From contig DXFQ01000051.1 in assembly GCA_019114365.1 (NCBI GenBank), positions 1-36,589 on the forward strand: a stretch of 36,589 nucleotides of DNA. The letters are read 5' to 3'. The notes beneath the pieces were generated by a model. That model saw only the letters and a list, made by a program, of their open reading frames with translations, had not been told where the DNA came from and ran no database searches. Shown here in pieces: positions 4,782-31,148 of this stretch (positions are counted from its first letter, which is position 1; each line of letters begins with the position of its first letter). Position numbers and translations under genes: made by a program. The stretch is from Candidatus Parakkermansia intestinigallinarum. GTDB lineage: Bacteria > Verrucomicrobiota > Verrucomicrobiia > Verrucomicrobiales > Akkermansiaceae.

Positions 4782-5465
4782 TCATGGGCGGCGCCGGGAT
4801 TCTCGAATTTTGCGCTGTGCCATGCGGCGGCTTTCTTCGGGCAGTCCGCCGTCTCTCAGGAGTTCGGCGGCGCGTTCGGGGTAGCGCAGGTGCAGCTCGC
4901 AGCAGCACCAGGCAACGGCCATGCGGGCGTAATAGCCCTCGGCGGGTTGACGGAGAAGAGCCTGAATGATCTCGGGCACCCATGCCGGTTCTTGCAGGTA
5001 GTGCTGCAAGAGCATGACGACGCCGAAGCGCGCCGGGTATTCTTCGCGGCTGTTCAGCAGGGGTTGCAGGCGTTCATAGGTCTCGCCGAGCCGCTCGCGG
5101 ACGAAGCGGTAGCTCGCGCAGCACGAATCGCAGAGGCTCCAGTTGCGGGCGGAGGGAACGTAGGCTTCAACCAGACGGAGCCGCGTCTCGTAGCTTTCGC
5201 GCCGCAGGTAAGCGGGCAGCAGGCCGCGCAGCATGACTTGCTCCATCCACTGCTCGCTGATGCCGGCGTCGAGATACTCCTGCCAAGCGCCTGCCGCCAG
5301 CTCGCGAGCTAAGCGCCGCAGGGCCGGCAGACGCACGCCGAGCATGGGCATCCCTCCGGGAATGAGTCTTGAGGCGAAGTCGCGGTAGGCAGGTTCTGCG
5401 AGGGCCTCAAGCTGCGGCAGGACGTCGGCGGGGTTGCTGATGACTCGGGCCGCGCCTGCTCTCAT
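4782..5465 (-). CDS. DNA alkylation repair protein (AlkD-like HEAT-repeat glycosylase)
   Basis: GVRLPALRRLARELA, WSLCDSCCAS, YYARMAVAWCCCEL and helical-repeat pattern typical of the AlkD family. Confidence 0.85.
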   Translation of the reverse strand: MRAGAARVISNPADVLPQLEALAEPAYRDFASRLIPGGMPMLGVRLPALRRLARELAAGAWQEYLDAGISEQWMEQVMLRGLLPAYLRRESYETRLRLVEAYVPSARNWSLCDSCCASYRFVRERLGETYERLQPLLNSREEYPARFGVVMLLQHYLQEPAWVPEIIQALLRQPAEGYYARMAVAWCCCELHLRYPERAAELLRDGGLPEESRRMAQRKIRESRRRP

Positions 5466-6571
5466 TGCTTCTCGGGACGGCGGTTTTCGAAGAGCTGCCG
5501 GAGTTCGTCAGTGGGGGCGTAGTCGTAGGCGCTCCGCCCGTCAGAATCTCGGATGGCGGGGTCGGCTCCGGCTTCGAGGAGGCGGAGCACAACCTGTTTC
5601 TTTTCGGCCGGGGTGACGATGTTACTCTCTCCGTCGGCGGCATCGCTCTCGGCCGCGGCGATGTCGCTCGGGGAGCTCACGGGGGCGAGGAGGGCGTAGA
5701 TGAGGGGGGTGCGCCCGCTGCTGTCTCGGCGGTGCACGGAGGCGCGGTTGTCGAGCAGGGTGCGAACGATGGGCTCATCGGCTCTGGCCGCCGCATACAT
5801 CAGGGGCGTCATGCCGGCTTTGTCGGCCCGGTCGATTCTTGCGCCGTGCCTGAGCAGCAGGGAGACGCAGGTTGCGTTGCCGTGGCCGACGGCTTTGTGC
5901 AGGGGTGTCAGGCCGCGTTTGTTCGCGAGATTGGGATCGGCGCCGTGTTCCAGCAGGCAGCGCACGATTTCGGGCGTGTAGGCGTCGCTCTCGAAGGCGG
6001 CTTGCAGGGGGCTGGTGCCGTCGGCGTCGCATTTATCCGGATCCGCCCCCAGAGCGCTGAGCACCTGCACGGAGCTGATGGCTCCGGTGCCGCTGGCGAT
6101 GATGAGGGGGGTGAAGCCGTTGCCGGCACTTTCGTTGATGTCGCTGCGCGGGTCGGCCAGCAGGACGTCCATGACGTTCACGTTGCCGGTGATGGCTGCC
6201 GCGATGAGGGGCGTGACGCAGGGGTCTTTCTCCTGATGGATGTCGGCGCCGTGTTCCAGCAGGCAGCGCACCATGTCGTCGCGGTTGAGCAGCGTGGCTG
6301 CCAGCAGCAGGGAGGTGCCGGACTCGTCCGTGGCGTTGACGTCGAGCCCGGCGTTGAGAAGGTGTTCGAGGTCGCTGACGTCTCCGTGCGCCATGACGGA
6401 GCCGATCCTTTGCAGGGTCGCTTTGTCGGGGTGACGGAGCTCGTCCGCGCCGATGGAGCCGACGGCGGCGGAGGGGCTTTCTTCGAGCGGGGCTCGGAGA
6501 GCTACTTGGCCGGAGGTCAGCAGAGCGAGTGCGCTGCCGGCGACAAGGAGCGTCTGTATGCTGCGTTTCAT
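5462..6571 (-). CDS. Secreted ankyrin-repeat protein
   Basis: Signal peptide MKRSIQTLLVAGSALALL; multiple ANK repeats (GTSLLLAATLLNRDDMVRCLLEHGADIH, GLTPLHKAVGHGNATCVSLLLRHGARID, etc.). ATGA overlap with alkD. Confidence 0.9.
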   Translation of the reverse strand: MKRSIQTLLVAGSALALLTSGQVALRAPLEESPSAAVGSIGADELRHPDKATLQRIGSVMAHGDVSDLEHLLNAGLDVNATDESGTSLLLAATLLNRDDMVRCLLEHGADIHQEKDPCVTPLIAAAITGNVNVMDVLLADPRSDINESAGNGFTPLIIASGTGAISSVQVLSALGADPDKCDADGTSPLQAAFESDAYTPEIVRCLLEHGADPNLANKRGLTPLHKAVGHGNATCVSLLLRHGARIDRADKAGMTPLMYAAARADEPIVRTLLDNRASVHRRDSSGRTPLIYALLAPVSSPSDIAAAESDAADGESNIVTPAEKKQVVLRLLEAGADPAIRDSDGRSAYDYAPTDELRQLFENRRPEKQ

Positions 6572-7241: not shown

Positions 7242-8825
7242 TCAGTCCTTGGGCGCCGCTGCCGCATCGCCGCCGCTCTCTTGTTCCGCTTTTTTGCGCC
7301 AGCGGTAGTTGAGGTAGAGCGGAAGCCCGAAGACCAGAATGAGCAGCAGAGGGATGAAGACGAAGTGAAAGATGTTGAGGGCGGAGGCGCAGCTGCTGTC
7401 GCCCAGTGCCGCTCCCTGCTTCCACCACTGATAGGTGAGCGTGGGGTTCCAGTCAAGGCCGGAGAAGGGGCTGAGGTGCAGGAAGCCGCGGCGCAGCATG
7501 GCCGAGGCGGCGCCGCCGTCGCTGGCCATGACGATCCAGTGGTTGGCGATGTCTTTTTCACCGGCGGAGAGGTAATAGTCGGCCAGAACGGCGGCTGCCG
7601 CAGGGTCGCCGTAGCGCTCGGCTGCGGTGCGCAGGTAGCGCAGGGCTTCTTCGCTGTCTCGTTCAATGCCGTCGGCGCCGTTGAGCAGCAGGCTCCCGGC
7701 CTGAGTCATTGCCTGCAGGTCGCCCATGCTGGCCGCTTGTTGCAGCAGGGGCAGGGCGTCGGCGTATTGGCCCGCTTCCGCCAGAAGGCGGGATTTGGTG
7801 GAGATGGCCGCAGCGTTGTTGCCGGCGGCGGCCAGATCGAGGTAGCGGAGCCCTTCGGCGTTCTGCTTGTCCGGTGCGGCGGAGGCGTCTCTTGTGCCGT
7901 TGAGGTTGAGGTGGTAGGAGGCCAGCAGCATGGCCATGGTTGCATCTTGCGTCTGCTCGACGATGCGGGCGGCGTAGCTCATGGCTTTTTCCGTGTCCTT
8001 TTCAACGGTCAGGCCCTCGGCGTAGCTCTTGAAGAGCTGGGTGAGCGCCCATTCGCTGCCCTGATCAGCGGCTTGCTCCAGTTTCGCGATGCCCGAGACG
8101 ACGTTTTGATCGACGCCCAAGCCCATTTGCTCCATGTAGCCGAGCCAGTAGAGGCTCTGCAAGTTGTTCGGATCGGCTTCGTAGCGCTCTCGGTAGATCT
8201 CGTAGGCGCGGGCGAAGGCTTTTTGCGATTCTTCGGCTTGCCCTTGGCCTTTGTATTGTTCGCCGAGCAGGTAAGCGGCCGAGGCTTCGCCTTTGTCGGC
8301 GGCCATGCTCAGCCAGCGTGCCGCTTGGGCGGCATCCTGCTCGACGAATTCTTCGCCTCGCCAGTAGAGGGCGGCCAGCAGCAGCATGGCTTTGGTGTCG
8401 CCCTTTTCCGCCTGCTGCGCCAGCATGTCGATGTAGCGCGTCGCCCACGAGTCGGCTTGGCGCAGTTTGCCGTTGAGGGCGTAGCGACGCGCCAGCTGGC
8501 AGGCGGCTTGCGCGTTGCCGGCGGCGGCTTCGTTTTTGAGTGCCGCCAGTTCGCCTTCGAGCTGAAGGTCGTCGGAATCAAAGATGAGCTCCGGCTTTTT
8601 CGGCGTTGGGGCGGGAGCGGCGCTCTCGCTCGGTGCCGAGGAGGCAGCCGCGGCTTCGCTTGTAGCTTCGCCGGAGGGGGCTGCCGAAGCCTCGCTTGAA
8701 GTTTCGCTTGAAGTTTCGCCGGAGGTTGTGGCCGGGGGCGTTGCGGGGGGCGTTTCTTGGGCGGACAGGGGCAGAAGGATGCTTGTCAGCGCCAGAAGGC
8801 GCAGGGCTTGTAGGGTGCGTTTCAT
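7242..8825 (-). CDS. Sel1-like repeat protein, signal peptide and C-terminal TM segment
   Basis: MKRTLQALRLLALTSILLPLSAQ signal; repeated A...LA..Y..G......A..W...AA..G...A SLR units; C-terminal FIPLLLILVFGLPLYLNYRWRKK. Start at MKRTL rather than the ORF-track start. Confidence 0.85.
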   Translation of the reverse strand: MKRTLQALRLLALTSILLPLSAQETPPATPPATTSGETSSETSSEASAAPSGEATSEAAAASSAPSESAAPAPTPKKPELIFDSDDLQLEGELAALKNEAAAGNAQAACQLARRYALNGKLRQADSWATRYIDMLAQQAEKGDTKAMLLLAALYWRGEEFVEQDAAQAARWLSMAADKGEASAAYLLGEQYKGQGQAEESQKAFARAYEIYRERYEADPNNLQSLYWLGYMEQMGLGVDQNVVSGIAKLEQAADQGSEWALTQLFKSYAEGLTVEKDTEKAMSYAARIVEQTQDATMAMLLASYHLNLNGTRDASAAPDKQNAEGLRYLDLAAAGNNAAAISTKSRLLAEAGQYADALPLLQQAASMGDLQAMTQAGSLLLNGADGIERDSEEALRYLRTAAERYGDPAAAAVLADYYLSAGEKDIANHWIVMASDGGAASAMLRRGFLHLSPFSGLDWNPTLTYQWWKQGAALGDSSCASALNIFHFVFIPLLLILVFGLPLYLNYRWRKKAEQESGGDAAAAPKD

Positions 8826-8977
8826 GCGGTGAAAAAGGAGTTTTGTGTTCGGAGATGCAGCCGTGCTGCGGCTTGTTCGAGAGGGAAGGGGGCGCCGGAG
8901 GCGCGGGAAGGTGAGAGGCGGAAGATGAGGCCGGATAACGAGGCGGAAGATGAGGCGGAATGACGAGGCGGGCGTAA

Positions 8978-10375
8978 TCAGTTCGGGGCGCGTCCGCTTG
9001 CCCGGCGGGCGTACGCTTCGGCTGCGGCTTCGTCGACTGCCGTGCCGATGCCTTGGCGGTAACATTCGCTGGCGCGTTGGGCGGCTCGGCGATAGCCCAT
9101 GTCGGCCGCTTGTCTGATTTTTTCGAAGCCTGCGATGTCATCTCGGGCGGTGCCGAGGCCGCTTTGTTCCAAGTAGCCGAGGCAGTAGAGCGAGACACAG
9201 TCGCCGGGGTCGGCGGCGTATCGCAGGGAGGCCGTTTCATAAGCGCTGCCGTAGGCCGCGTCGGCCGCCTGTTGCTCGCCTCGTGTCGCATAAAAGTCTC
9301 CCAGCAGGAGGAATGCGGGGGCGTAGAGTTTGCGCTCGGCGGCTTCGGTGAGGTAGCGCAGGGCACGCGCTTCGTCGACCTCAACGCCGCCGCGACCGCT
9401 CAGCAGGGTGATGGCCGCCTCGGTCATCGACAGTTCATTGCCCATGTCGGCCGCTGCGGCAAAGAGCGGCAGCGCCTCGGCGTGGCGACCTGCTGCGCTG
9501 AGAAGCTGCGCTTTGTGTTGCATGGCGTTGGCGTGGTGGCCGCGCACGGCGATGTCGAGGTAGAGCCGTCCCTTTTCGTCGCTCTCGTCCGCGCCCCGGC
9601 CGGGGAAGCGCCTGCCGTCGAGGTTCATGAAGTAACGCGCCAGACTGTTGGCCATCATGGGGTCGCCCGTGATGGCCACCAAGCGCTCGGCATAGCCTGC
9701 GGCGCGGTCGAGGTCGATCGCTACTCCCTTGCCGCAGGTGTAGGTCTCGTGCAGGCATCGCAGCGCCCTGATGTCTCCGAGTGCTGCCGCGCGTTCGAGC
9801 TTCTCGAGCCCGGCGGCACGTTGTTTCTCCGTGTCTGATGCGTTGACTTCCAGGTAGCCGAGCCAGTACAGGGCATCGGCGTCCGCTGCGTCGGCGGCAA
9901 GGCGTGTGCGGCAGAGTTCGCAGGCCGCGGCGTATGCCCTGCGCGAGTCTTCTTCGCGTCCCTGCCTCTTGTAGAGCGCTCCCAGCACGCAGGCGGCCGC
10001 AGGCTCGCCGGCTTCGACCGCTTTGCGGAACCAAGCGACGGCTCGGGCCTCGTCCTTTTTGATGAACTCATGGCCGCTGCGATAATCCGCGCCCAGCTGC
10101 ATCATGGCGTGCACGTCACCGCGTTCGGCGCGCTGCTCGAGGATTTCGATGTAGCGTGCCGCCCAGTGCTCTGCCTGTGATGCTTCGCCCTTCAGTTTGC
10201 ACGCGCGTGCCCGTTGCAGCGCGGCATCGGCATCGGTATCGGCATCGCCTGCCGCCGCTTCTTGCCCGAGTGCGCTGTCTGCCGGCTCTTGCGCCGACGC
10301 TCCCCCGGCTGCCGCATGTGCTTGAAGAGGCAGCGGAAGGAGCAGGCTGAGGGCAAGAAGGCGGGAAAGCGTCAT
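8978..10375 (-). CDS. Secreted Sel1-like repeat protein
   Basis: MTLSRLLALSLLLPLPLQAHA signal peptide; multiple SLR/TPR-like repeats (AVAWFRKAVEAGEPAAACVLGALYKRQG etc.). Confidence 0.87.
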   Translation of the reverse strand: MTLSRLLALSLLLPLPLQAHAAAGGASAQEPADSALGQEAAAGDADTDADAALQRARACKLKGEASQAEHWAARYIEILEQRAERGDVHAMMQLGADYRSGHEFIKKDEARAVAWFRKAVEAGEPAAACVLGALYKRQGREEDSRRAYAAACELCRTRLAADAADADALYWLGYLEVNASDTEKQRAAGLEKLERAAALGDIRALRCLHETYTCGKGVAIDLDRAAGYAERLVAITGDPMMANSLARYFMNLDGRRFPGRGADESDEKGRLYLDIAVRGHHANAMQHKAQLLSAAGRHAEALPLFAAAADMGNELSMTEAAITLLSGRGGVEVDEARALRYLTEAAERKLYAPAFLLLGDFYATRGEQQAADAAYGSAYETASLRYAADPGDCVSLYCLGYLEQSGLGTARDDIAGFEKIRQAADMGYRRAAQRASECYRQGIGTAVDEAAAEAYARRASGRAPN

Positions 10376-14058: not shown

Positions 14059-14955
14059 TTATCGGCTCCGGCGGGGTTTGTCTGCGGCGCGTTGTTTTGG
14101 CGACGGGTGCCCGGGGAAAGGCGATTTGCTTCCGGCTTGCAGTAGTCGGATCATGGCTGTGTTTGAGTTTTGCTCGGCCATGCGCAGCGGGGAGAGTCCC
14201 TCGGTTGTGTCGCAGGCGTCGACGTCAGCTCCGGCTTCGATGAGGATGCGCGCGCAGTCGATTCTGTTTTTGGAGACGGCGACATGCAGGGGTGTTTCTC
14301 CAAAGGTATTGCCGGTGTTGACGTCAGCTCCGGCTTCGATGAGGGTGCGTGCACACTCAACGCGCCCGTGGCGGACGGCAAAGTGGAGGGGCGTGCCGAT
14401 GCTGTCGTCGGTTTGGGCGTTGATGTCGGCTCCGTGGCTGAGCAGGGCTTTGATGATGGCGGGGCTTTTGGCTACGTGGAGGGCCTGCCAGCCGTCTGGG
14501 TCTTTTGCGTTGACGTCTGCTCCGGCGGCCAGTAGGGCTTTGACGCATGAAGGATGCCCTTTCTGTGCGGCTTTGAAGAGTGCTGTTTGCGTGTCGAAGT
14601 TGCGGGCGTTGACGTCTGCTCCGGCCTCCAGCAGGGCGTTGAGGCAGTCGGTGTGCCCTTCGTATGCGGCTATGAAGAGTGCGCTGTCTTGGTTTTGGCG
14701 TGTGTTGGGGTCGGCTCCGGCGGCCAGCAGGAGTTTGAGGCGGCCGGGTTTGCCTTCGGCGACGGCTTTGAGGAGTTCTCGGTTGTATTGCGCAGGTTCG
14801 ATGCCTTGAGCTTGCAGCTTGGCTCGGGCGTCGCGGCGGCTCGTGGTTGATGTTGACTGTTTGTTTTCGTCGGCAGGGTCTTGAGGGTCACAGGATGTGA
14901 GGGTTGCGGGGGGCAGTAACAGGCAGACTGCGAGGAGTAGGTGTGATGGGTGCAT
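14059..14955 (-). CDS. Ankyrin-repeat lipoprotein
   Basis: MHPSHLLLAVCLLLPPATLTSCDPQ lipobox; about 7 ANK repeats (DSALFIAAYEGHTDCLNALLEAGADVNARN etc.). Confidence 0.9.
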   Translation of the reverse strand: MHPSHLLLAVCLLLPPATLTSCDPQDPADENKQSTSTTSRRDARAKLQAQGIEPAQYNRELLKAVAEGKPGRLKLLLAAGADPNTRQNQDSALFIAAYEGHTDCLNALLEAGADVNARNFDTQTALFKAAQKGHPSCVKALLAAGADVNAKDPDGWQALHVAKSPAIIKALLSHGADINAQTDDSIGTPLHFAVRHGRVECARTLIEAGADVNTGNTFGETPLHVAVSKNRIDCARILIEAGADVDACDTTEGLSPLRMAEQNSNTAMIRLLQAGSKSPFPGHPSPKQRAADKPRRSR

Positions 14956-21548: not shown

Positions 21549-22661
21549 TTAGTTCTGCGCGGCTTGTTTGAGCTGCAGGGATTCGTCGCCGAACGAGATG
21601 CCGATTTCCTTGGCGGCGGTGACGATCTGGCTCTGGATGTCGACCAGATGCAGGGTTCTGACGGCTTCTTCGATGGGCATGGACACCATGTCGTTGCGGC
21701 TCAGCGCGACGGTGTCGCCGAACTTGCCCTCTTCGATGAGGTCGATGGCCTTGGCTCCGCAGCGCACGCCGAGCACGCGGTCGAAGGGAATGGGGTCGCC
21801 GCCGCGCTGGATGTGACCGAGCACGCAGTAGCGGGTTTCGATGCCGGTGAGGGTTTCGAGCTTGGTCGAGAGGAAGGCGGCGATGCCGCCGAGGCGTACC
21901 TCGCCCTTCGTCTCTTCATCGAGGGTGAGCAGCTTGCCGCCGATGCGGGCGCCTTCGCTGACCACGACGATGATTTCTCGCTGCCCCAGTGCCTTGAGCA
22001 GTTCAACCTTGCGCACGATGTCCTCGAGCGTGAACTCGATTTCCGGCAGCAGGATGACGTCGGCACCGCCGGCGATGCCGCCGTAGAGGGCGATCCATCC
22101 GGCATGGCGACCCATCACCTCGACGACCATCATGCGCTGGTGTGAGAAGGCGGTGGTGCGCAGGCGATCGAGGTTTTCGCTCACGACGGAGACGGCCGTC
22201 CAGAAGCCGAAGGTGTAGTCGGTGGCGCCGAGGTCGTTGTCGATGGTTTTGGGCACGCCGACGATGGGCAGGCCGATGTGGCGCAGCTCCAGGCCGATGG
22301 TTTGGGAGCCGTCGCCGCCCACGACGATGAGCGCTTTGAGGTCGAGCCTCTCGACGGTTTCTTTGCTGCGGCGCAGAACGTCGTCTGCAATCTGCAGGCG
22401 GCCGCCCACACCGCTCTTGACCGTGAAGTTGCCTTTGTTGACCGTGCCCAGAATGGTGCCGCCGGTTGAGCGGATGTTGTGGCAGTTCTGGGGGGTGAGG
22501 ATGCGATAGCGTTCGTTTTCGGGGGTGGAGAGCAGACCCTCAAAGCCATCGTAGAAGCCGTAGACGGTCCAGCCGCGGGCAGAGGCGGCGGCAACGGCGC
22601 CTTCAATCACTGCGTTGAGCCCGGGGCAGTCGCCGCCGGCGTTGAGAATACCGATGTTCAT
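21549..22661 (-). CDS. pfkA: 6-phosphofructokinase (group III-like: GGDGS + PKTIDND)
   Basis: GILNAGGDCPGLNAVIEG, VVGGDGSQTIG, VPKTIDNDLGATDYTFGF, SHQRMMVVEVMGRHAGWIAL, LLPEIEF, RYCVLGHIQRGGDPIPFDR; catalytic residues intact. Confidence 0.92.
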   Translation of the reverse strand: MNIGILNAGGDCPGLNAVIEGAVAAASARGWTVYGFYDGFEGLLSTPENERYRILTPQNCHNIRSTGGTILGTVNKGNFTVKSGVGGRLQIADDVLRRSKETVERLDLKALIVVGGDGSQTIGLELRHIGLPIVGVPKTIDNDLGATDYTFGFWTAVSVVSENLDRLRTTAFSHQRMMVVEVMGRHAGWIALYGGIAGGADVILLPEIEFTLEDIVRKVELLKALGQREIIVVVSEGARIGGKLLTLDEETKGEVRLGGIAAFLSTKLETLTGIETRYCVLGHIQRGGDPIPFDRVLGVRCGAKAIDLIEEGKFGDTVALSRNDMVSMPIEEAVRTLHLVDIQSQIVTAAKEIGISFGDESLQLKQAAQN

Positions 22662-22664
22662 GAG

Positions 22665-23672
22665 TTATCTGGTGGGGGTGTGGGTGGATGTGGAGGTGGT
22701 ATTGTTGCTCGGCATGAGGATGAACTCCTCCCTCTTCGAGGTGTCACTGGTGAGCTGCCAATTGCGCCATTCCTGCCAACCGTCGCGCATGAAGTTGTTG
22801 GCAAGGGCGTAGCGCTGCTGCGGAGAGGGCATGCCCAGAATGACGATAAGCAGCCGCTGGGCGTAGGTCGAATCTCTGCCCGTCAGGGGGTTGGGCAGTT
22901 TGATCGAGGCGCGTCGCGCCGTGGCCAGCAGGCAGCAGCCGGCACTCTGCGAGCGTGCGGCCTTGATGCCGTCCACCGCTTCGCCCGATGAGAGCATGCG
23001 GTTGGTGTTGACGACGTTGCGCTGCTTGGTCGCGCCGTCGGGCATGTAGATGCTCACCTGGGCGCTGCGCTGCGAGCAGATGGTGCGCAGGGTCGTGTTG
23101 TCGATGGCGTACATGGAGAGGACGGCCATGTCTCTCGCTGTCGACTGCGAGATGGTGGCGCCGCTGGGGCCCTTGAACACGGTTGAATCCATCTTCAGCG
23201 AGCCGCGTGCCAAGCGGTTCATCTGTGTAGTGAAGGCGCCGATGGGATCGCTCGGGCTGATGACGGAGCCGCAGGCGTATGCCAAGGTGATGGCCGCGCT
23301 GCTGTCGTCCCAGAGCAGCGCGGAGTAGAGCGCGTCTCTCAGGGTGAGCCGAGCCCCGGGCACCAGACCGAGCAGGTTGGTGTTGGGGTGCTCAAGCACT
23401 TGCATCGGGGCGGTGATGAGCGTGTCGAGACTCACATTCTGCTGCGAGACCCAGTCGAGCACGACGGCAGCGGTGACGACGTTGGCCAGCATGCCGATCG
23501 GGCGGCGCTCATTGGCGTTGGACGAGTACAGGATGCGCCCCGTCGAGACTTCGAGGGCTAGGTAACTCGGCTGTGGCGCCTGAGGCGGAGCTTGGCCGAC
23601 CGTACCGGCGCAGGAGCTGAGCAGCAGCCCGGCAAGCCCGAGAACGGCGGCTTTGATGCGGAGGGGGGTCAT
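22665..23672 (-). CDS. DacA/PBP5-like (S11) lipoprotein with degenerate active site
   Basis: Lipobox GLLLSSC; YLALEVSTGRILYSSNANERRPIG; fold-diagnostic flanks retained but SxxK to MLAN, SxN to DDS, KTG to KAA. Confidence 0.8.
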   Translation of the reverse strand: MTPLRIKAAVLGLAGLLLSSCAGTVGQAPPQAPQPSYLALEVSTGRILYSSNANERRPIGMLANVVTAAVVLDWVSQQNVSLDTLITAPMQVLEHPNTNLLGLVPGARLTLRDALYSALLWDDSSAAITLAYACGSVISPSDPIGAFTTQMNRLARGSLKMDSTVFKGPSGATISQSTARDMAVLSMYAIDNTTLRTICSQRSAQVSIYMPDGATKQRNVVNTNRMLSSGEAVDGIKAARSQSAGCCLLATARRASIKLPNPLTGRDSTYAQRLLIVILGMPSPQQRYALANNFMRDGWQEWRNWQLTSDTSKREEFILMPSNNTTSTSTHTPTR

Positions 23673-24823
23673 GATGCCGATTTGCTGCTCTTGCGCGTCG
23701 TTTTCGCGGTGGGACGGCTGCCGTTCAGCGCACCGGGCTCACGGTCGCCGAAGATGATGCCCAAGTCGCGAGCCGTTTGCACAATCTGGCTGTCCGGCTG
23801 CACGAGACGCGGTTTCCTGACGGCTTCGTCGATGGTGACGGTGCCCACGTTGAGTCCCTCCAGAACAATGGAGGTGCCGAATTTTTTCTCTTCGATGAGC
23901 CGCACGGCTTCGACGCCGAAGCGGATGCCGAGGATGCGATCGAAGGCGCAGGGCGAGCCGCCGCGCTGGGTGTGCCCGAGCACGCAGTATCGCGTCTCGA
24001 TACCGGTGAGCTCTTCAAGCTCGCGTGCGAGGCGGTTGCCGATGCCGCCGAGGCGCTCATCGCCGTTCTCGGTGTTGCGGACGGTGACGAGCTGGCCGTT
24101 GATGCGCGCGCCTTCGGCGACGACGACGATGATTTCGCGCTGTCCGTTCGCCTTGCGGGCCTTGATGCAGTCCACGACCTTGTTGAGGTCAAACTCAATT
24201 TCGGGGATGAGTACGACGTCGGCAGCGGACGAGATGCCGCTGTGCAGCGCGATCCACCCCGAGAGGTTGCCCATCACCTCGATGACCATCATGCGCTGGT
24301 GCGAGTTGGCCGTCGTGCGGATGCGGTCGATGGATTCGGTGACGACGGAGACGGCGCTCTGGAAGCCGAAGGTGTAGTCCGAGGCGATGCAGAGGTCGTT
24401 GTTGATGGTTTTGGGAATGCTGATGACCGGCAGCCCTTCTTCCGAGAGCAGTTGCGCCGTCTTGGCCGAGCCGTCACCACCGATGACGACCAGAGCCTGA
24501 AGCCCCAGAGCGGTGATGGTCTTTTTGGCCTTCGCCATGACGTCTTTATCGATGGAGGCGCGCCCGACCTTGTTCGTGCGGACGTTGAAGTTGCCGGTGT
24601 TCGTCGTGCCGAGGATGGTGCCGCCGACCGAGCGAATCTTGTGCGTCTTGATCGGGGTGAGAATCTCATAGCGGCGCCCGCCCGCAACCGGGAGCAGACC
24701 TTCGAAGCCGTCGTGGAAACCGATCACGCGCCAGCCCCGCCGGTAGGCTGAAGTGACGAAACCTTCAATGACTGCGTTGATGCCGGGACAATCGCCGCCG
24801 GAGTTGAGGATGCCGATAATCAT
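23669..24823 (-). CDS. 6-phosphofructokinase paralog with altered catalytic motif (PKTINND, MGN)
   Basis: GILNSGGDCPGINAVIEG, VIGGDGSAKTAQ, IPKTINNDLCIASDYTFGF, EVMGNLSGWIAL, RYCVLGHTQRGGSPCAFDRILG. ATGA overlap with the downstream DacA-like gene. Confidence 0.92.
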   Translation of the reverse strand: MIIGILNSGGDCPGINAVIEGFVTSAYRRGWRVIGFHDGFEGLLPVAGGRRYEILTPIKTHKIRSVGGTILGTTNTGNFNVRTNKVGRASIDKDVMAKAKKTITALGLQALVVIGGDGSAKTAQLLSEEGLPVISIPKTINNDLCIASDYTFGFQSAVSVVTESIDRIRTTANSHQRMMVIEVMGNLSGWIALHSGISSAADVVLIPEIEFDLNKVVDCIKARKANGQREIIVVVAEGARINGQLVTVRNTENGDERLGGIGNRLARELEELTGIETRYCVLGHTQRGGSPCAFDRILGIRFGVEAVRLIEEKKFGTSIVLEGLNVGTVTIDEAVRKPRLVQPDSQIVQTARDLGIIFGDREPGALNGSRPTAKTTRKSSKSAS

Positions 24824-28370: not shown

Positions 28371-28649
28371 ATGAGAAAGTACGAAGCACTGATCGTCCTG
28401 AATATGAAGGGATCTGCCACGCTTGACGAGCTGACCGCCGCGATGACGGAGAAGCTTGAGTCCGTTGGCGCCAAGGTTACCGAGACCAAGAACCTGGGTC
28501 GCCGTGAGTTCGCTTATGAGTCCGACCACCAGAAGTTCGGTCAGTACATGAGCTTCTCCTTCGAGGCTGAGCCCTCCGTGCCGCGTGCTGCTCGCGAGGC
28601 TCTGTCCATCGACGATCGCGTCCACTACCAGTACTACCGCGTCAAGTAA
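28371..28649 (+). CDS. rpsF: 30S ribosomal protein bS6
   Basis: MRKYEALIVLNMKG..., KNLGRREFAYESDHQKFGQYMSFSFEA, HYQYYRVK. Confidence 0.93.
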   Translation: MRKYEALIVLNMKGSATLDELTAAMTEKLESVGAKVTETKNLGRREFAYESDHQKFGQYMSFSFEAEPSVPRAAREALSIDDRVHYQYYRVK

Positions 28650-28831: not shown

Positions 28832-30256
28832 TCAGCAGAGGGCGGAACAGAGCTCGCGGAGCTGAGCGAGGCCCCGCGCCGGGCGCAGCCATTCGGGGCG
28901 AGAGAGGGAAGCGGCTTCAATCGCGCGTCGCCACGCGACGGGCAGGGCACGCAGACCGAAGCGCGCACCGAGCAGGGCGCCCGCAATGGCGGCGTTGGTA
29001 TCCGTGTCGCCGCCTCGGGCGACGAGACGGCAGAGCGCGGGGGCGACGGCTTCGGCGTCCGGGGTCGTCAGCAGCAGCCGGAAGGCTGCCTGAAAGGCGA
29101 TTTCGACCCAGCCGGCATGGTCCTCATAGTCCGGCTCGCCCATGCGGGCGGCGGCGAGGCGCAGCTCGAGTTCGCGGTCGCCGAGGCGGCGGGAGCGCGC
29201 GACGGCCGCCGCGATGATGTTTTCGGTTGCCTCTCCCTGCATGGCGAGGCGCAGCGCTTCGACAAAGATGATGTTGGCGCAGGCACAGCGGGGGTGCACA
29301 TGCGTGAGCGCGGCATCCTGCGCGGCGGCCTTCTGCCAGTCGAGCTCCGGATGCAGCAGGGAAAAGGCAGCGATCGGGGCAACGCGCATCAGCGCCCCGT
29401 TGGCCTGAGACTGCGGCTGCGCCTGCCCGCAGAGCGCGGATGCCGTGGTGAGGCCGACGGAGGGCGGATCCGTCGCGAGCCAGCGGCGGTAGGCGGCCAA
29501 GGCGTCGGCGGCGTTGTAGGTCTTGCAGCGGCAGAGCGAATCGAGCAGGCAGAGAGCCATCTCACTGTCGTCCGTGACATCTCCCGGGGCGACGTGGGCG
29601 GTTGTGCCCCAGCCCTGCTGCATGCCGGGCACAGCGTCGGGGAAGAGCCGCCGCAGGATCTCGGCGGATTTGAACTCGACGGGAGCCCCCAAGGCGTCGC
29701 CGCACATCAGCCCCGTCAGGCAGCCCATGATTTTGTCCCTGAGCGCCTCCGCCTTGTGCTCGCCGCTTGCGCCCTCCGCCTTGCCGCCTCCGCCGCAGGC
29801 CCCGATCGGATGCTCATGCACAAGCGGGAAATCGTGCGCCAGCGGGTAGTCGGGCACATGAATGAGCTCGACGCCGTATAGCTCGGCAATGGCCGGCGCT
29901 TCGGAGGCCGCGTAGTTCTCGCCGTAGTAGATGGTGCGCACGCCATGCGCGCACAGAGCCTGCATGCACGAGGTGCAGGGCATGGTGGTGCAGGCCACGA
30001 TGCGGGCCTCTCCGCGCTTGAAGAGACTGCACAGGTTGATTTCGGCGTGCATCATGAACTTCTGGCGCTCGTCTCGCGAGGCCCAGAAGCCCTCGGGTGC
30101 CGTAAAGCCGGGAAAGAGCCCGTTGTAGGCCGTGCCGATCACGCGGTTGTCTTTGTCGAGAGCGGCGGCGCCCACCTTGCGGTAGGGGTCTTCGGAGCGC
30201 AGCGCAGCCACGTGCGCCAAGGCCATCACGTACTCGGGGATGGAAAGTCGGCTCAT
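28832..30256 (-). CDS. Fusion: N-terminal CMP/dCMP deaminase + C-terminal ADP-ribosylglycohydrolase (DraG/ARH-like)
   Basis: Deaminase: YRKVGAAALDKDNRVIGTAYNG, HAEINLC, PCTSCMQALCAHGVRTIYYGE. ARH: GCLTGLMCGDALGAPVEF, GDVTDDSEMALCLLDSL, SQANGALMRVAP, LTHVHPRC, GGDTDTNAAIAGALLGARFG. One continuous frame with a Gly-rich linker. Confidence 0.93.
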   Translation of the reverse strand: MSRLSIPEYVMALAHVAALRSEDPYRKVGAAALDKDNRVIGTAYNGLFPGFTAPEGFWASRDERQKFMMHAEINLCSLFKRGEARIVACTTMPCTSCMQALCAHGVRTIYYGENYAASEAPAIAELYGVELIHVPDYPLAHDFPLVHEHPIGACGGGGKAEGASGEHKAEALRDKIMGCLTGLMCGDALGAPVEFKSAEILRRLFPDAVPGMQQGWGTTAHVAPGDVTDDSEMALCLLDSLCRCKTYNAADALAAYRRWLATDPPSVGLTTASALCGQAQPQSQANGALMRVAPIAAFSLLHPELDWQKAAAQDAALTHVHPRCACANIIFVEALRLAMQGEATENIIAAAVARSRRLGDRELELRLAAARMGEPDYEDHAGWVEIAFQAAFRLLLTTPDAEAVAPALCRLVARGGDTDTNAAIAGALLGARFGLRALPVAWRRAIEAASLSRPEWLRPARGLAQLRELCSALC

Positions 30257-30262
30257 GGCTTT

Positions 30263-30290
30263 ACTATAGCAGAAAGATGCTGTCAGACAA
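30263..30290 (-). promoter_or_regulatory. Promoter of the deaminase-ADPRH fusion (TTGTCT-16-TATAGT, extended -10 TGC)
   Basis: Minus strand TTGTCT GACAGCATCTTTCTGC TATAGT AAAGCC ATG; start site predicted at or next to the ATG. Confidence 0.7.
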
Positions 30291-30341
30291 GGATGAAATA
30301 AAGCTCGACACTTGGTGCCGATTCTGCTATACAGCGATGAA

Positions 30342-31148
30342 ATGGGCAAGTTCGTCAATCCTCTGGCCTTTGTGGCGGTGCTTTGCTTCGTCCTCTATCG
30401 CTTCGCGGGCATGGCGGTGGACGAGGAGGTGAGTGGTCGCACCGATGCGCTGCTGCTCACGGTTTGCGTGACTCTGTGTTTTGTTTATTTCACGCTGGCG
30501 CTGGCTCGCGCGATCGCGCATCGCGGCGGGGCGTCCGGTGCCGTGTGGGGCACGCTTTATCTGCTGACGGCCGCTCTGCTCTTTGTCGGCAGCGGGCGGG
30601 GCGCATCAAACGAGGAGCTTTCCGCCGCTTACCGCAGCCATTACGAGGCGTGGAAGAAGGGCGGCGACCCCTGTGCGCCTGATGAAAACGGTGAGTCTCT
30701 GCTCACGCTGGCGGCGAGCCTCGGCAAGATTGACCTGCTGGAGCGCTTGTTGAATGCGGAGGCGGAGATCCCGGTGGAGATGAAGCGCAAGGCGGCTCTG
30801 CTCGCAGCGGAAAATCGCCGCAGCAAGAGTTTGGAGTTGTTGCTGCGCTCGGGCGTCGGCGTCAACGACGCAGTGGAGGGCAGCACACTGCTCTGTGCGG
30901 CGGCTCTGTCCGGTCATGCCGACATCGTCGAGCAGTTGCTCAAGGCCGGCGCTGATCCCAACCTGGCCGATGCCGATCAATCCACGGCGCTGATTCATGC
31001 CGTCATCGCCGATGACCCGATCTGCGTGCGCCTCCTGATGGAAGCCGGCGCCGACCCGACCCACCGCAACAACGACGGACGCGATGCGGCCGGTTACTCC
31101 GTCAACTCTCAAATCGACCAACTGCTCAACACCGCCAAGACACCATGA
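30342..31148 (+). CDS. Membrane-anchored ankyrin-repeat protein
   Basis: N-terminal TM helices (PLAFVAVLCFVLYRFAGMAV; LLLTVCVTLCFVYFTLALARA; GTLYLLTAALLFVGS) followed by ANK repeats (STLLCAAALSGHADIVEQLLKAGADPNLADADQ). ATG at 30342 used in place of the TTG start. Confidence 0.88.
   Translation: MGKFVNPLAFVAVLCFVLYRFAGMAVDEEVSGRTDALLLTVCVTLCFVYFTLALARAIAHRGGASGAVWGTLYLLTAALLFVGSGRGASNEELSAAYRSHYEAWKKGGDPCAPDENGESLLTLAASLGKIDLLERLLNAEAEIPVEMKRKAALLAAENRRSKSLELLLRSGVGVNDAVEGSTLLCAAALSGHADIVEQLLKAGADPNLADADQSTALIHAVIADDPICVRLLMEAGADPTHRNNDGRDAAGYSVNSQIDQLLNTAKTP

What the first reader, a model, noticed from the sequence alone, without database searches (positions are those of the whole stretch)
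28832..30256. Single-chain fusion of a CMP/dCMP deaminase and an ADP-ribosylglycohydrolase
Seen: one uninterrupted minus-strand frame holds a Zn-dependent deaminase (HAE at residues ~70-72, PCTSC at ~93-97) and, from residue ~171 after a Gly-rich linker (GACGGGGKAEGASGEHK), a DraG/ARH-type hydrolase with its metal-binding motifs kept (GDVTDDS and GGDTDTN). Known: dCMP deaminases feed dUMP/dTMP synthesis and occur in phage and anti-phage nucleotide pathways; ARH enzymes remove ADP-ribose from proteins and some nucleic-acid or nucleotide targets. Inference: the fusion suggests coupled processing of an ADP-ribosylated (deoxy)cytidine nucleotide, or ADP-ribosylation control of the deaminase. No ADP-ribosyltransferase partner is in the window. 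I do not know this fusion as a characterised system.
Basis: partly seen in the sequence, partly recalled or inferred. Interest (0 to 1): 0.85.

Follow-up and report, generated by a model that had tools for sequence, protein, structure and literature searches.

The report
dCMP deaminase fused to ADP-ribose hydrolase
A gut bacterium of the genus Akkermansia, and about a dozen of its sister species, carry a real and previously uncharacterised fusion of a core DNA-precursor enzyme with an ADP-ribose-removing enzyme; the two halves look only loosely coupled, and in this particular species the second half has lost a key catalytic residue.

Summary
The fusion is real. One uninterrupted 474-codon frame (30256..28835, minus strand) encodes a dCMP-deaminase domain, a disordered linker and a complete ARH/DraG-type domain. 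The window is an Akkermansia genome from the group found in hoofed animals' guts. The same fusion occurs in 13 of 77 Akkermansia species genomes, so it is not a frameshift or assembly artefact. I found it in no sampled genome of the phylum outside Akkermansia and in no phage, plasmid or viral contig. The deaminase is the genus's core route from dCMP to dUMP: ThyA is near-universal, while ThyX and dCTP deaminase are absent. Most sister species have it alone, often at the same locus. In one lineage the ARH domain was removed by a clean in-frame deletion, and the same ARH type also occurs alone. Akkermansia ARH genes otherwise sit among, or fused to, ankyrin-repeat genes, as in poly-immunity loci. 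Most likely this is a two-function protein: a housekeeping deaminase carrying a captured, immunity-type de-ADP-ribosylase on a flexible tether. Substrate coupling is not supported. Category: new variant of known families.

The parts
28832..30256 (-). fused gene, 474 aa: dCMP deaminase + ARH/DraG-type ADP-ribosylglycohydrolase
   Evidence: homologous fusions
29819..30256 (-). dCMP deaminase domain, residues 1-146; up to 90% identical to standalone deaminases
30041..30049 (-). HAE zinc/catalytic motif, residues 70-72
29966..29980 (-). PCTSC zinc motif, residues 93-97
29744..29818 (-). linker, residues 147-171; model confidence below 50 at residues 143-162; variable in length and sequence among species
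28847..29743 (-). ARH/DraG-type domain, residues 172-470
29564..29584 (-). GDVTDDS, residues 225-231: first metal-ligand motif (T59-D60-D61 of R. rubrum DraG)
29459..29461 (-). Ser266, at the position of R. rubrum DraG Asp97 (crucial for DraG activity; PMC7050489); Asp in the other fused copies aligned
28994..29014 (-). GGDTDTN, residues 415-421: second metal-ligand motif (D243, D245, T246 of DraG)
30263..30290 (-). promoter-like TTGTCT-16-TATAGT ending 6 nt before the ATG (leaderless transcript likely)
28371..28649 (+). rpsF (ribosomal protein bS6), converging on the fusion; conserved downstream neighbour of standalone deaminases in several species
   Evidence: read from the sequence
30312..31148 (+). 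ankyrin-repeat protein with a hydrophobic N-terminal part, diverging from the fusion; also beside standalone deaminases

Best explanation
The gene makes a two-function protein. The N-terminal part is the cell's housekeeping dCMP deaminase, which turns dCMP into dUMP for thymidylate synthesis by ThyA. The C-terminal part is an ARH-type, metal-dependent (ADP-ribosyl)hydrolase whose relatives in the same genus sit in ankyrin-rich, immunity-like gene arrays. It became joined to the deaminase gene and is now made from the deaminase promoter on a flexible tether. The two domains work largely independently: the deaminase feeds dUMP, and the ARH removes ADP-ribose placed on cell molecules by foreign transferases (phage or rival bacteria). 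In the window's own species the ARH active site lacks the DraG-specific Asp, so its activity is probably reduced or altered. Shown: the fusion, its spread, its loss in one lineage, selection on both domains, the metal ligands and the Asp-to-Ser change. Inferred: the catalytic activities, the immunity role and the independence of the domains.
For: Both domains are detected in one chain. The fusion is present in 13 of 77 species genomes. All fused-type ARHs, including standalone ones, form one clade with 100/100 support. ThyA is in 29 of 31 genus genomes, ThyX in 0 of 31, and dCTP deaminase above cut-off in 0 of 40, so the deaminase is the core dUMP route. Deaminase dN/dS is about 0.02-0.08 and ARH dN/dS about 0.08-0.34 within the main fused clade, so both domains are under purifying selection and the ARH is less constrained. 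The linker is disordered between two confident domains, pLDDT 92.3, pTM 0.69. In L088 an in-frame deletion of the ARH keeps the deaminase and the next gene. ARH copies lie beside ankyrin genes or are fused to ankyrin repeats. ARHs and ankyrins are listed immunity families, ARH specifically against ADP-ribosyltransferase toxins (PMC3482391). ARH-centred systems without a coupled transferase are proposed counter-ADP-ribosylation defences (PMC9503650). Metal ligands are intact and the fold matches DraG structures.
Against: There is no enzymatic data and no identified transferase or modified target; no DarT was found in any fusion-bearing genome. The immunity reading rests on neighbourhoods of paralogues, not of the fusion itself, which sits among housekeeping genes. 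The fusion persists in many species, which could mean that the physical link matters. The DraG-specific Asp is Ser here and Asn in L071, so in these copies the ARH may not be a hydrolase at all.
Confidence: 0.5

Rival explanations
1. Guarded metabolic enzyme: the ARH domain keeps its own deaminase, or the dUMP pathway, free of ADP-ribosylation by phage or rival transferases, or the deaminase is switched by endogenous ADP-ribosylation. The physical link matters.
For: The deaminase is the only visible dedicated dUMP source and a plausible target. Tethering an eraser to the target is economical. The fusion is kept in several separate branches of the genus.
Against: The linker is variable and disordered. 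The ARH was lost by in-frame deletion in L088 with the deaminase kept. Standalone ARHs of the same clade exist. Most species keep an unfused deaminase of high identity. No transferase is known.
Confidence: 0.2
2. Regulatory or decaying pseudo-enzyme: in the window's species the ARH domain binds ADP-ribose or a related nucleotide without efficient hydrolysis, as an allosteric or sensing domain of the deaminase or as a domain on the way to loss.
For: Ser266 replaces the Asp crucial in DraG, and L071 has Asn there. The window domain has the longest end branch of the fused clade. Ankyrin-ARH paralogues with a wrecked active site exist in the genus.
Against: All metal ligands, the TH motif, the NGxxMR motif and the Glu-flap Glu are intact. 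ARH1 and ARH3 are active without this Asp (PMC7050489). Ten of 90 sites conserved in the other lineages are changed in the window, no more than in L067 (10 of 90) or L041 (9 of 89), which keep Asp.
Confidence: 0.2
3. Neutral read-through fusion: a neighbouring ARH gene was joined by loss of a stop codon and rides along with no function.
For: Fused and unfused species share hosts. The domain was lost cleanly in L088 and is out of frame in L071.
Against: The ARH half is under purifying selection (dN/dS about 0.08-0.34), with no stop codons in 13 species, and its metal ligands are invariant among the fused copies.
Confidence: 0.08
4. Assembly or frameshift artefact.
For: All named fused genomes seen are metagenome assemblies; L071 shows the same pair out of frame.
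Against: The same in-frame fusion occurs in a dozen independently assembled species from several animal hosts and projects.
Confidence: 0.01

Closest known systems
dCMP deaminase family (human DCTD 2w4l, T4 dCD 1vq2, Bacillus ComEB)
   Same: HAE and PCxxC zinc motifs, YNG motif and full domain; best solved match is human dCMP deaminase
   Different: ComEB equivalog cut-off not reached (41.5 against 219 bits); here a C-terminal ARH domain is attached
DraG, ADP-ribosyl-[dinitrogenase reductase] hydrolase
   Same: fold (TM-score 0.80-0.85 by target length) and all dinuclear-metal ligands
   Different: about 25% identity; far below the DraG equivalog cut-off (113.9 against 337 bits); Asp97 is Ser, the ExxA adenine-binding Glu121 is Gln, Tyr212 is Trp; no DraT or nitrogenase domain among the window genes scanned
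ARH-type immunity proteins (Tri1; Imm-ADP-RGHD; Lmo0067)
   Same: ARH fold; orphan ARH systems without a partner transferase have been proposed as defences (PMC3482391, PMC9503650)
   Different: Tri1 cut-off not reached (60.9 against 490 bits); no toxin gene recognised nearby; attached to a metabolic enzyme
Anti-phage dCTP deaminases
   Same: deaminase fold; weak profile hits
   Different: the long N-terminal part of those models is absent; cut-off not reached (46.2 against 400 bits); housekeeping locus

Membership tests
dCMP/deoxycytidylate deaminase (PF00383-type) | HxE plus PCxxC zinc motifs in the deaminase domain | tested here: met
dCMP/deoxycytidylate deaminase (PF00383-type) | deaminates dCMP in vitro | not testable with these tools
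   no assay; pathway context ThyA present, ThyX and Dcd absent in the genus
ARH superfamily (PF03747) | full domain above the curated cut-off | tested here: met
   184.6 against 26.2 bits, profile positions 1-285 of 287
ARH superfamily (PF03747) | dinuclear-metal ligands (T-D-D and D-x-D-T) | tested here: met
   T228, D229, D230, D417, D419, T420
DraG class of ARH | DraG-specific Asp97 | tested here: not met
   Ser266 in the window; Asp in the other fused copies aligned, Asn in L071
DraG class of ARH | ExxA adenine motif (Glu121) | tested here: not met
   Gln284, with a shorter loop
DraG equivalog TIGR02662 | equivalog cut-off | tested here: not met
   113.9 against 337.05 bits
Tri1 immunity hydrolase NF041672 | equivalog cut-off | tested here: not met
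   60.9 against 490 bits
anti-phage dCTP deaminase NF041025 | equivalog cut-off and the long N-terminal part of the model | tested here: not met
   46.2 against 400 bits; the protein starts directly with the deaminase domain
ART-ARH pair or DarTG-like system | adjacent ADP-ribosyltransferase | tested here: not met
   no ART-type Pfam hit among the window genes scanned; DarT in 0 fusion-bearing genomes. The PF01129 search gave no hit in controls either, so it is not evidence of absence

The most novel reading that the evidence does not exclude
A self-guarding metabolic enzyme: the genus's sole dedicated dUMP-producing deaminase carries its own de-ADP-ribosylase, which erases inactivating ADP-ribose placed on it by phage or rival transferases. 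This would imply that dUMP supply is a target of ADP-ribosylation in gut bacterial conflict. In some species the tethered domain has turned into a non-hydrolytic ADP-ribose sensor.
Probability: 0.12. Interest if true: 0.8.

Novelty: new variant of a known kind. Interest (0 to 1): 0.45.

Why it matters
It links a core nucleotide enzyme to ADP-ribose removal in a well-studied gut genus, and the genus offers a natural experiment: fused, split, secondarily unfused and standalone copies in sister species. If the link is functional, it would point to dUMP supply as a target of ADP-ribosylation. If not, it still shows how an immunity-type enzyme can be placed under a housekeeping promoter by gene fusion.

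Tried and rejected
Artefact: rejected because the in-frame fusion recurs in a dozen species. Phage or mobile origin: the viral-contig scan confirmed no relative, though only two short deaminase peptides were used as patterns; phage and plasmid tblastn gave no place covering 80% of the query, the best hits being ARH alone. Fusion elsewhere in the phylum: none outside Akkermansia in 246 sampled genomes. The single genome-contig scan reaches close relatives only, so other phyla are not excluded. DarT partner: only in 3 genomes without the fusion. An ART search with PF01129 was uninformative because no control rang. Vestigial ARH in the 1.2-kb gap of L078: rejected, no ARH similarity there. Number of fusion and loss events: not resolved; the deaminase tree has few supported branches and I made no species tree. 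Literature searches for this fusion found nothing relevant. The rpsF row used the wrong strand of the window; the gene was re-read from the sequence on the + strand, and its position next to a standalone deaminase is seen directly in L078.

Full report
WHAT IS THERE. The minus-strand frame 30256..28835 is one open frame of 474 codons. Pfam finds dCMP_cyt_deam_1 at residues 7-112 (8e-13) and ADP_ribosyl_GH at 178-439 (4e-54). Human dCMP deaminase (2w4l) and R. rubrum DraG (2woc/2woe) are the best solved matches of the two parts. An AlphaFold2 model has mean pLDDT 92.3 but pTM 0.69, with residues 143-162 below 50: two confident domains on a floppy linker. Foldseek matches the C-terminal part to DraG, TM-score 0.80-0.85 by target length.

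WHO HAS IT. The genome lies in the genus Akkermansia; the close relatives are mostly metagenome assemblies from hoofed animals. Of 77 Akkermansia species genomes, 13 carry the fusion (12 full length, one split by a contig end, G088). One more (G087/L071) has the two genes adjacent but in different frames, and nearly all the rest have a standalone deaminase 73-90% identical to the window's. In 246 genomes drawn across the phylum no fusion was found outside the genus. None was found in the phage, plasmid or viral-contig collections. Other phyla were reached only by the close-relative scan, so a distant analogue is not excluded.

SAME LOCUS, WITH AND WITHOUT THE SECOND DOMAIN. In several species the standalone deaminase lies beside rpsF, kdsD, an N-acylglucosamine epimerase gene and pfk, as the fusion does in the window. 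In others the divergent ankyrin-protein gene of the window is the neighbour. In the yak species L088 the deaminase ends with a fused-type linker followed directly by the last codons of the ARH domain (EQAK-stop), and then by the same overlapping ATGA start of the next gene as in its fused sisters. I read this as an in-frame deletion of the ARH domain, so there the fusion came first. All fused-type ARH domains form one clade (100/100), which also holds standalone copies in G024, G003 and G030; G072 and G084 carry further standalone copies at 49-54% identity. The deaminase tree is too poorly supported to count events.

SELECTION AND RESIDUES. Within the main fused clade pairwise dN/dS is about 0.02-0.07 for the deaminase part and 0.08-0.34 for the ARH part, so both are under purifying selection and the ARH is looser; comparisons with the window itself are near saturation. 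Deaminase zinc residues are invariant. All ARH metal ligands (T228, D229, D230, D417, D419, T420), the TH motif and the Glu-flap Glu are intact in the window. [quoted passage not shown] rubrum, shown to be crucial; review PMC7050489) is Ser266 in the window and Asn in L071. It is Asp in the other copies aligned, and the only further exceptions are two ankyrin-ARH paralogues with an otherwise wrecked active site. The adenine-binding Glu121 is Gln throughout most of the group. ARH1 and ARH3 work without Asp97, so this weakens but does not exclude activity. The window copy is no more changed at conserved sites than L067 or L041, which keep Asp.

CONTEXT FOR FUNCTION. ThyA is present in 29 of 31 genus genomes, the exceptions being incomplete assemblies (one of them the window's own); ThyX in 0 of 31; dCTP deaminase above cut-off in 0 of 40. 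The dCMP deaminase is therefore the genus's main dedicated source of dUMP. The gene has a promoter-like TTGxxx/TATxxT pair ending 6-7 nt before the ATG in fused and many unfused species, suggesting a leaderless transcript. Other Akkermansia ARH genes sit beside ankyrin-repeat genes, and several are ankyrin-ARH fusions, some with intact and some with ruined active sites. ARH and ankyrin proteins are both catalogued as immunity families, ankyrins in poly-immunity loci and ARH against ADP-ribosyltransferase toxins (PMC3482391). ARH systems without a coupled transferase have been proposed to undo viral ADP-ribosylation (PMC9503650). No ADP-ribosyltransferase domain was detected among the window genes scanned, and DarT occurs only in three genomes without the fusion.

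INTERPRETATION. The best-supported reading is a bifunctional protein with largely independent parts: a housekeeping deaminase plus a captured immunity-type ARH that gains the deaminase's expression. In the window species the ARH part may be weakened, altered or a binder only. Catalytic activities, targets and any phage or toxin role are inference.

STATUS. Both domains are members of known superfamilies. The ARH part fails the DraG and Tri1 equivalog cut-offs and the deaminase part fails the ComEB and anti-phage-deaminase cut-offs; the ARH also fails two DraG-class residues, so it is an unclassified ARH. The architecture is restricted, as far as sampled, to one genus, and I found no paper describing it.

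Noticed in passing
L050:5551-6834(-), L054:5201-6493(+), L151 (G068:C5), L152 (G073:C20): Ankyrin-repeat-ARH fusions in the same genus; L050 and L054 have lost the metal site (T-D-D to G-D-A), L151 and L152 keep it. The dead copies sit beside an intact standalone ARH.
   Followed up: partly
window 30263-30290 and upstream of the deaminase in many Akkermansia loci: A -35/-10-like pair ends 6-7 nt before the deaminase ATG with no obvious ribosome-binding site, suggesting a conserved leaderless mRNA.
   Followed up: partly
C-terminal tails/linkers, e.g. L009, L015, L020, L060-L070: Many linkers and some standalone tails carry a CxC or CxCC motif (e.g. PACDC, PCGCCNHH), possibly a metal site or the vestige of an older fusion.
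   Followed up: partly
L071:6400-6720: Deaminase and ARH genes adjacent but one base out of frame within a low-complexity linker: a natural split or a single-base assembly error.
   Followed up: partly
L078:6450-7600: About 1.2 kb of repeat-like filler between the standalone deaminase and rpsF, where most relatives have under 200 bases.
   Followed up: partly
Akkermansia genus: Neither ThyX (0 of 31) nor dCTP deaminase (0 of 40 above cut-off) was found; thymidylate supply appears to run through dCMP deaminase and ThyA.
   Followed up: yes
window 5462-6571, 7242-10375, 14059-14955, 30312-31148: The window is rich in ankyrin- and Sel1-repeat proteins; ankyrin genes recur near ARH genes in the genus.
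   Followed up: partly
window 7242-9065 (-): Sel1-repeat protein with an internal match (residues 320-378) to the PtuA ATPase defence model.
   Followed up: no
window 21549-24823: Two phosphofructokinase genes flank a D-Ala-D-Ala carboxypeptidase-type gene.
   Followed up: no
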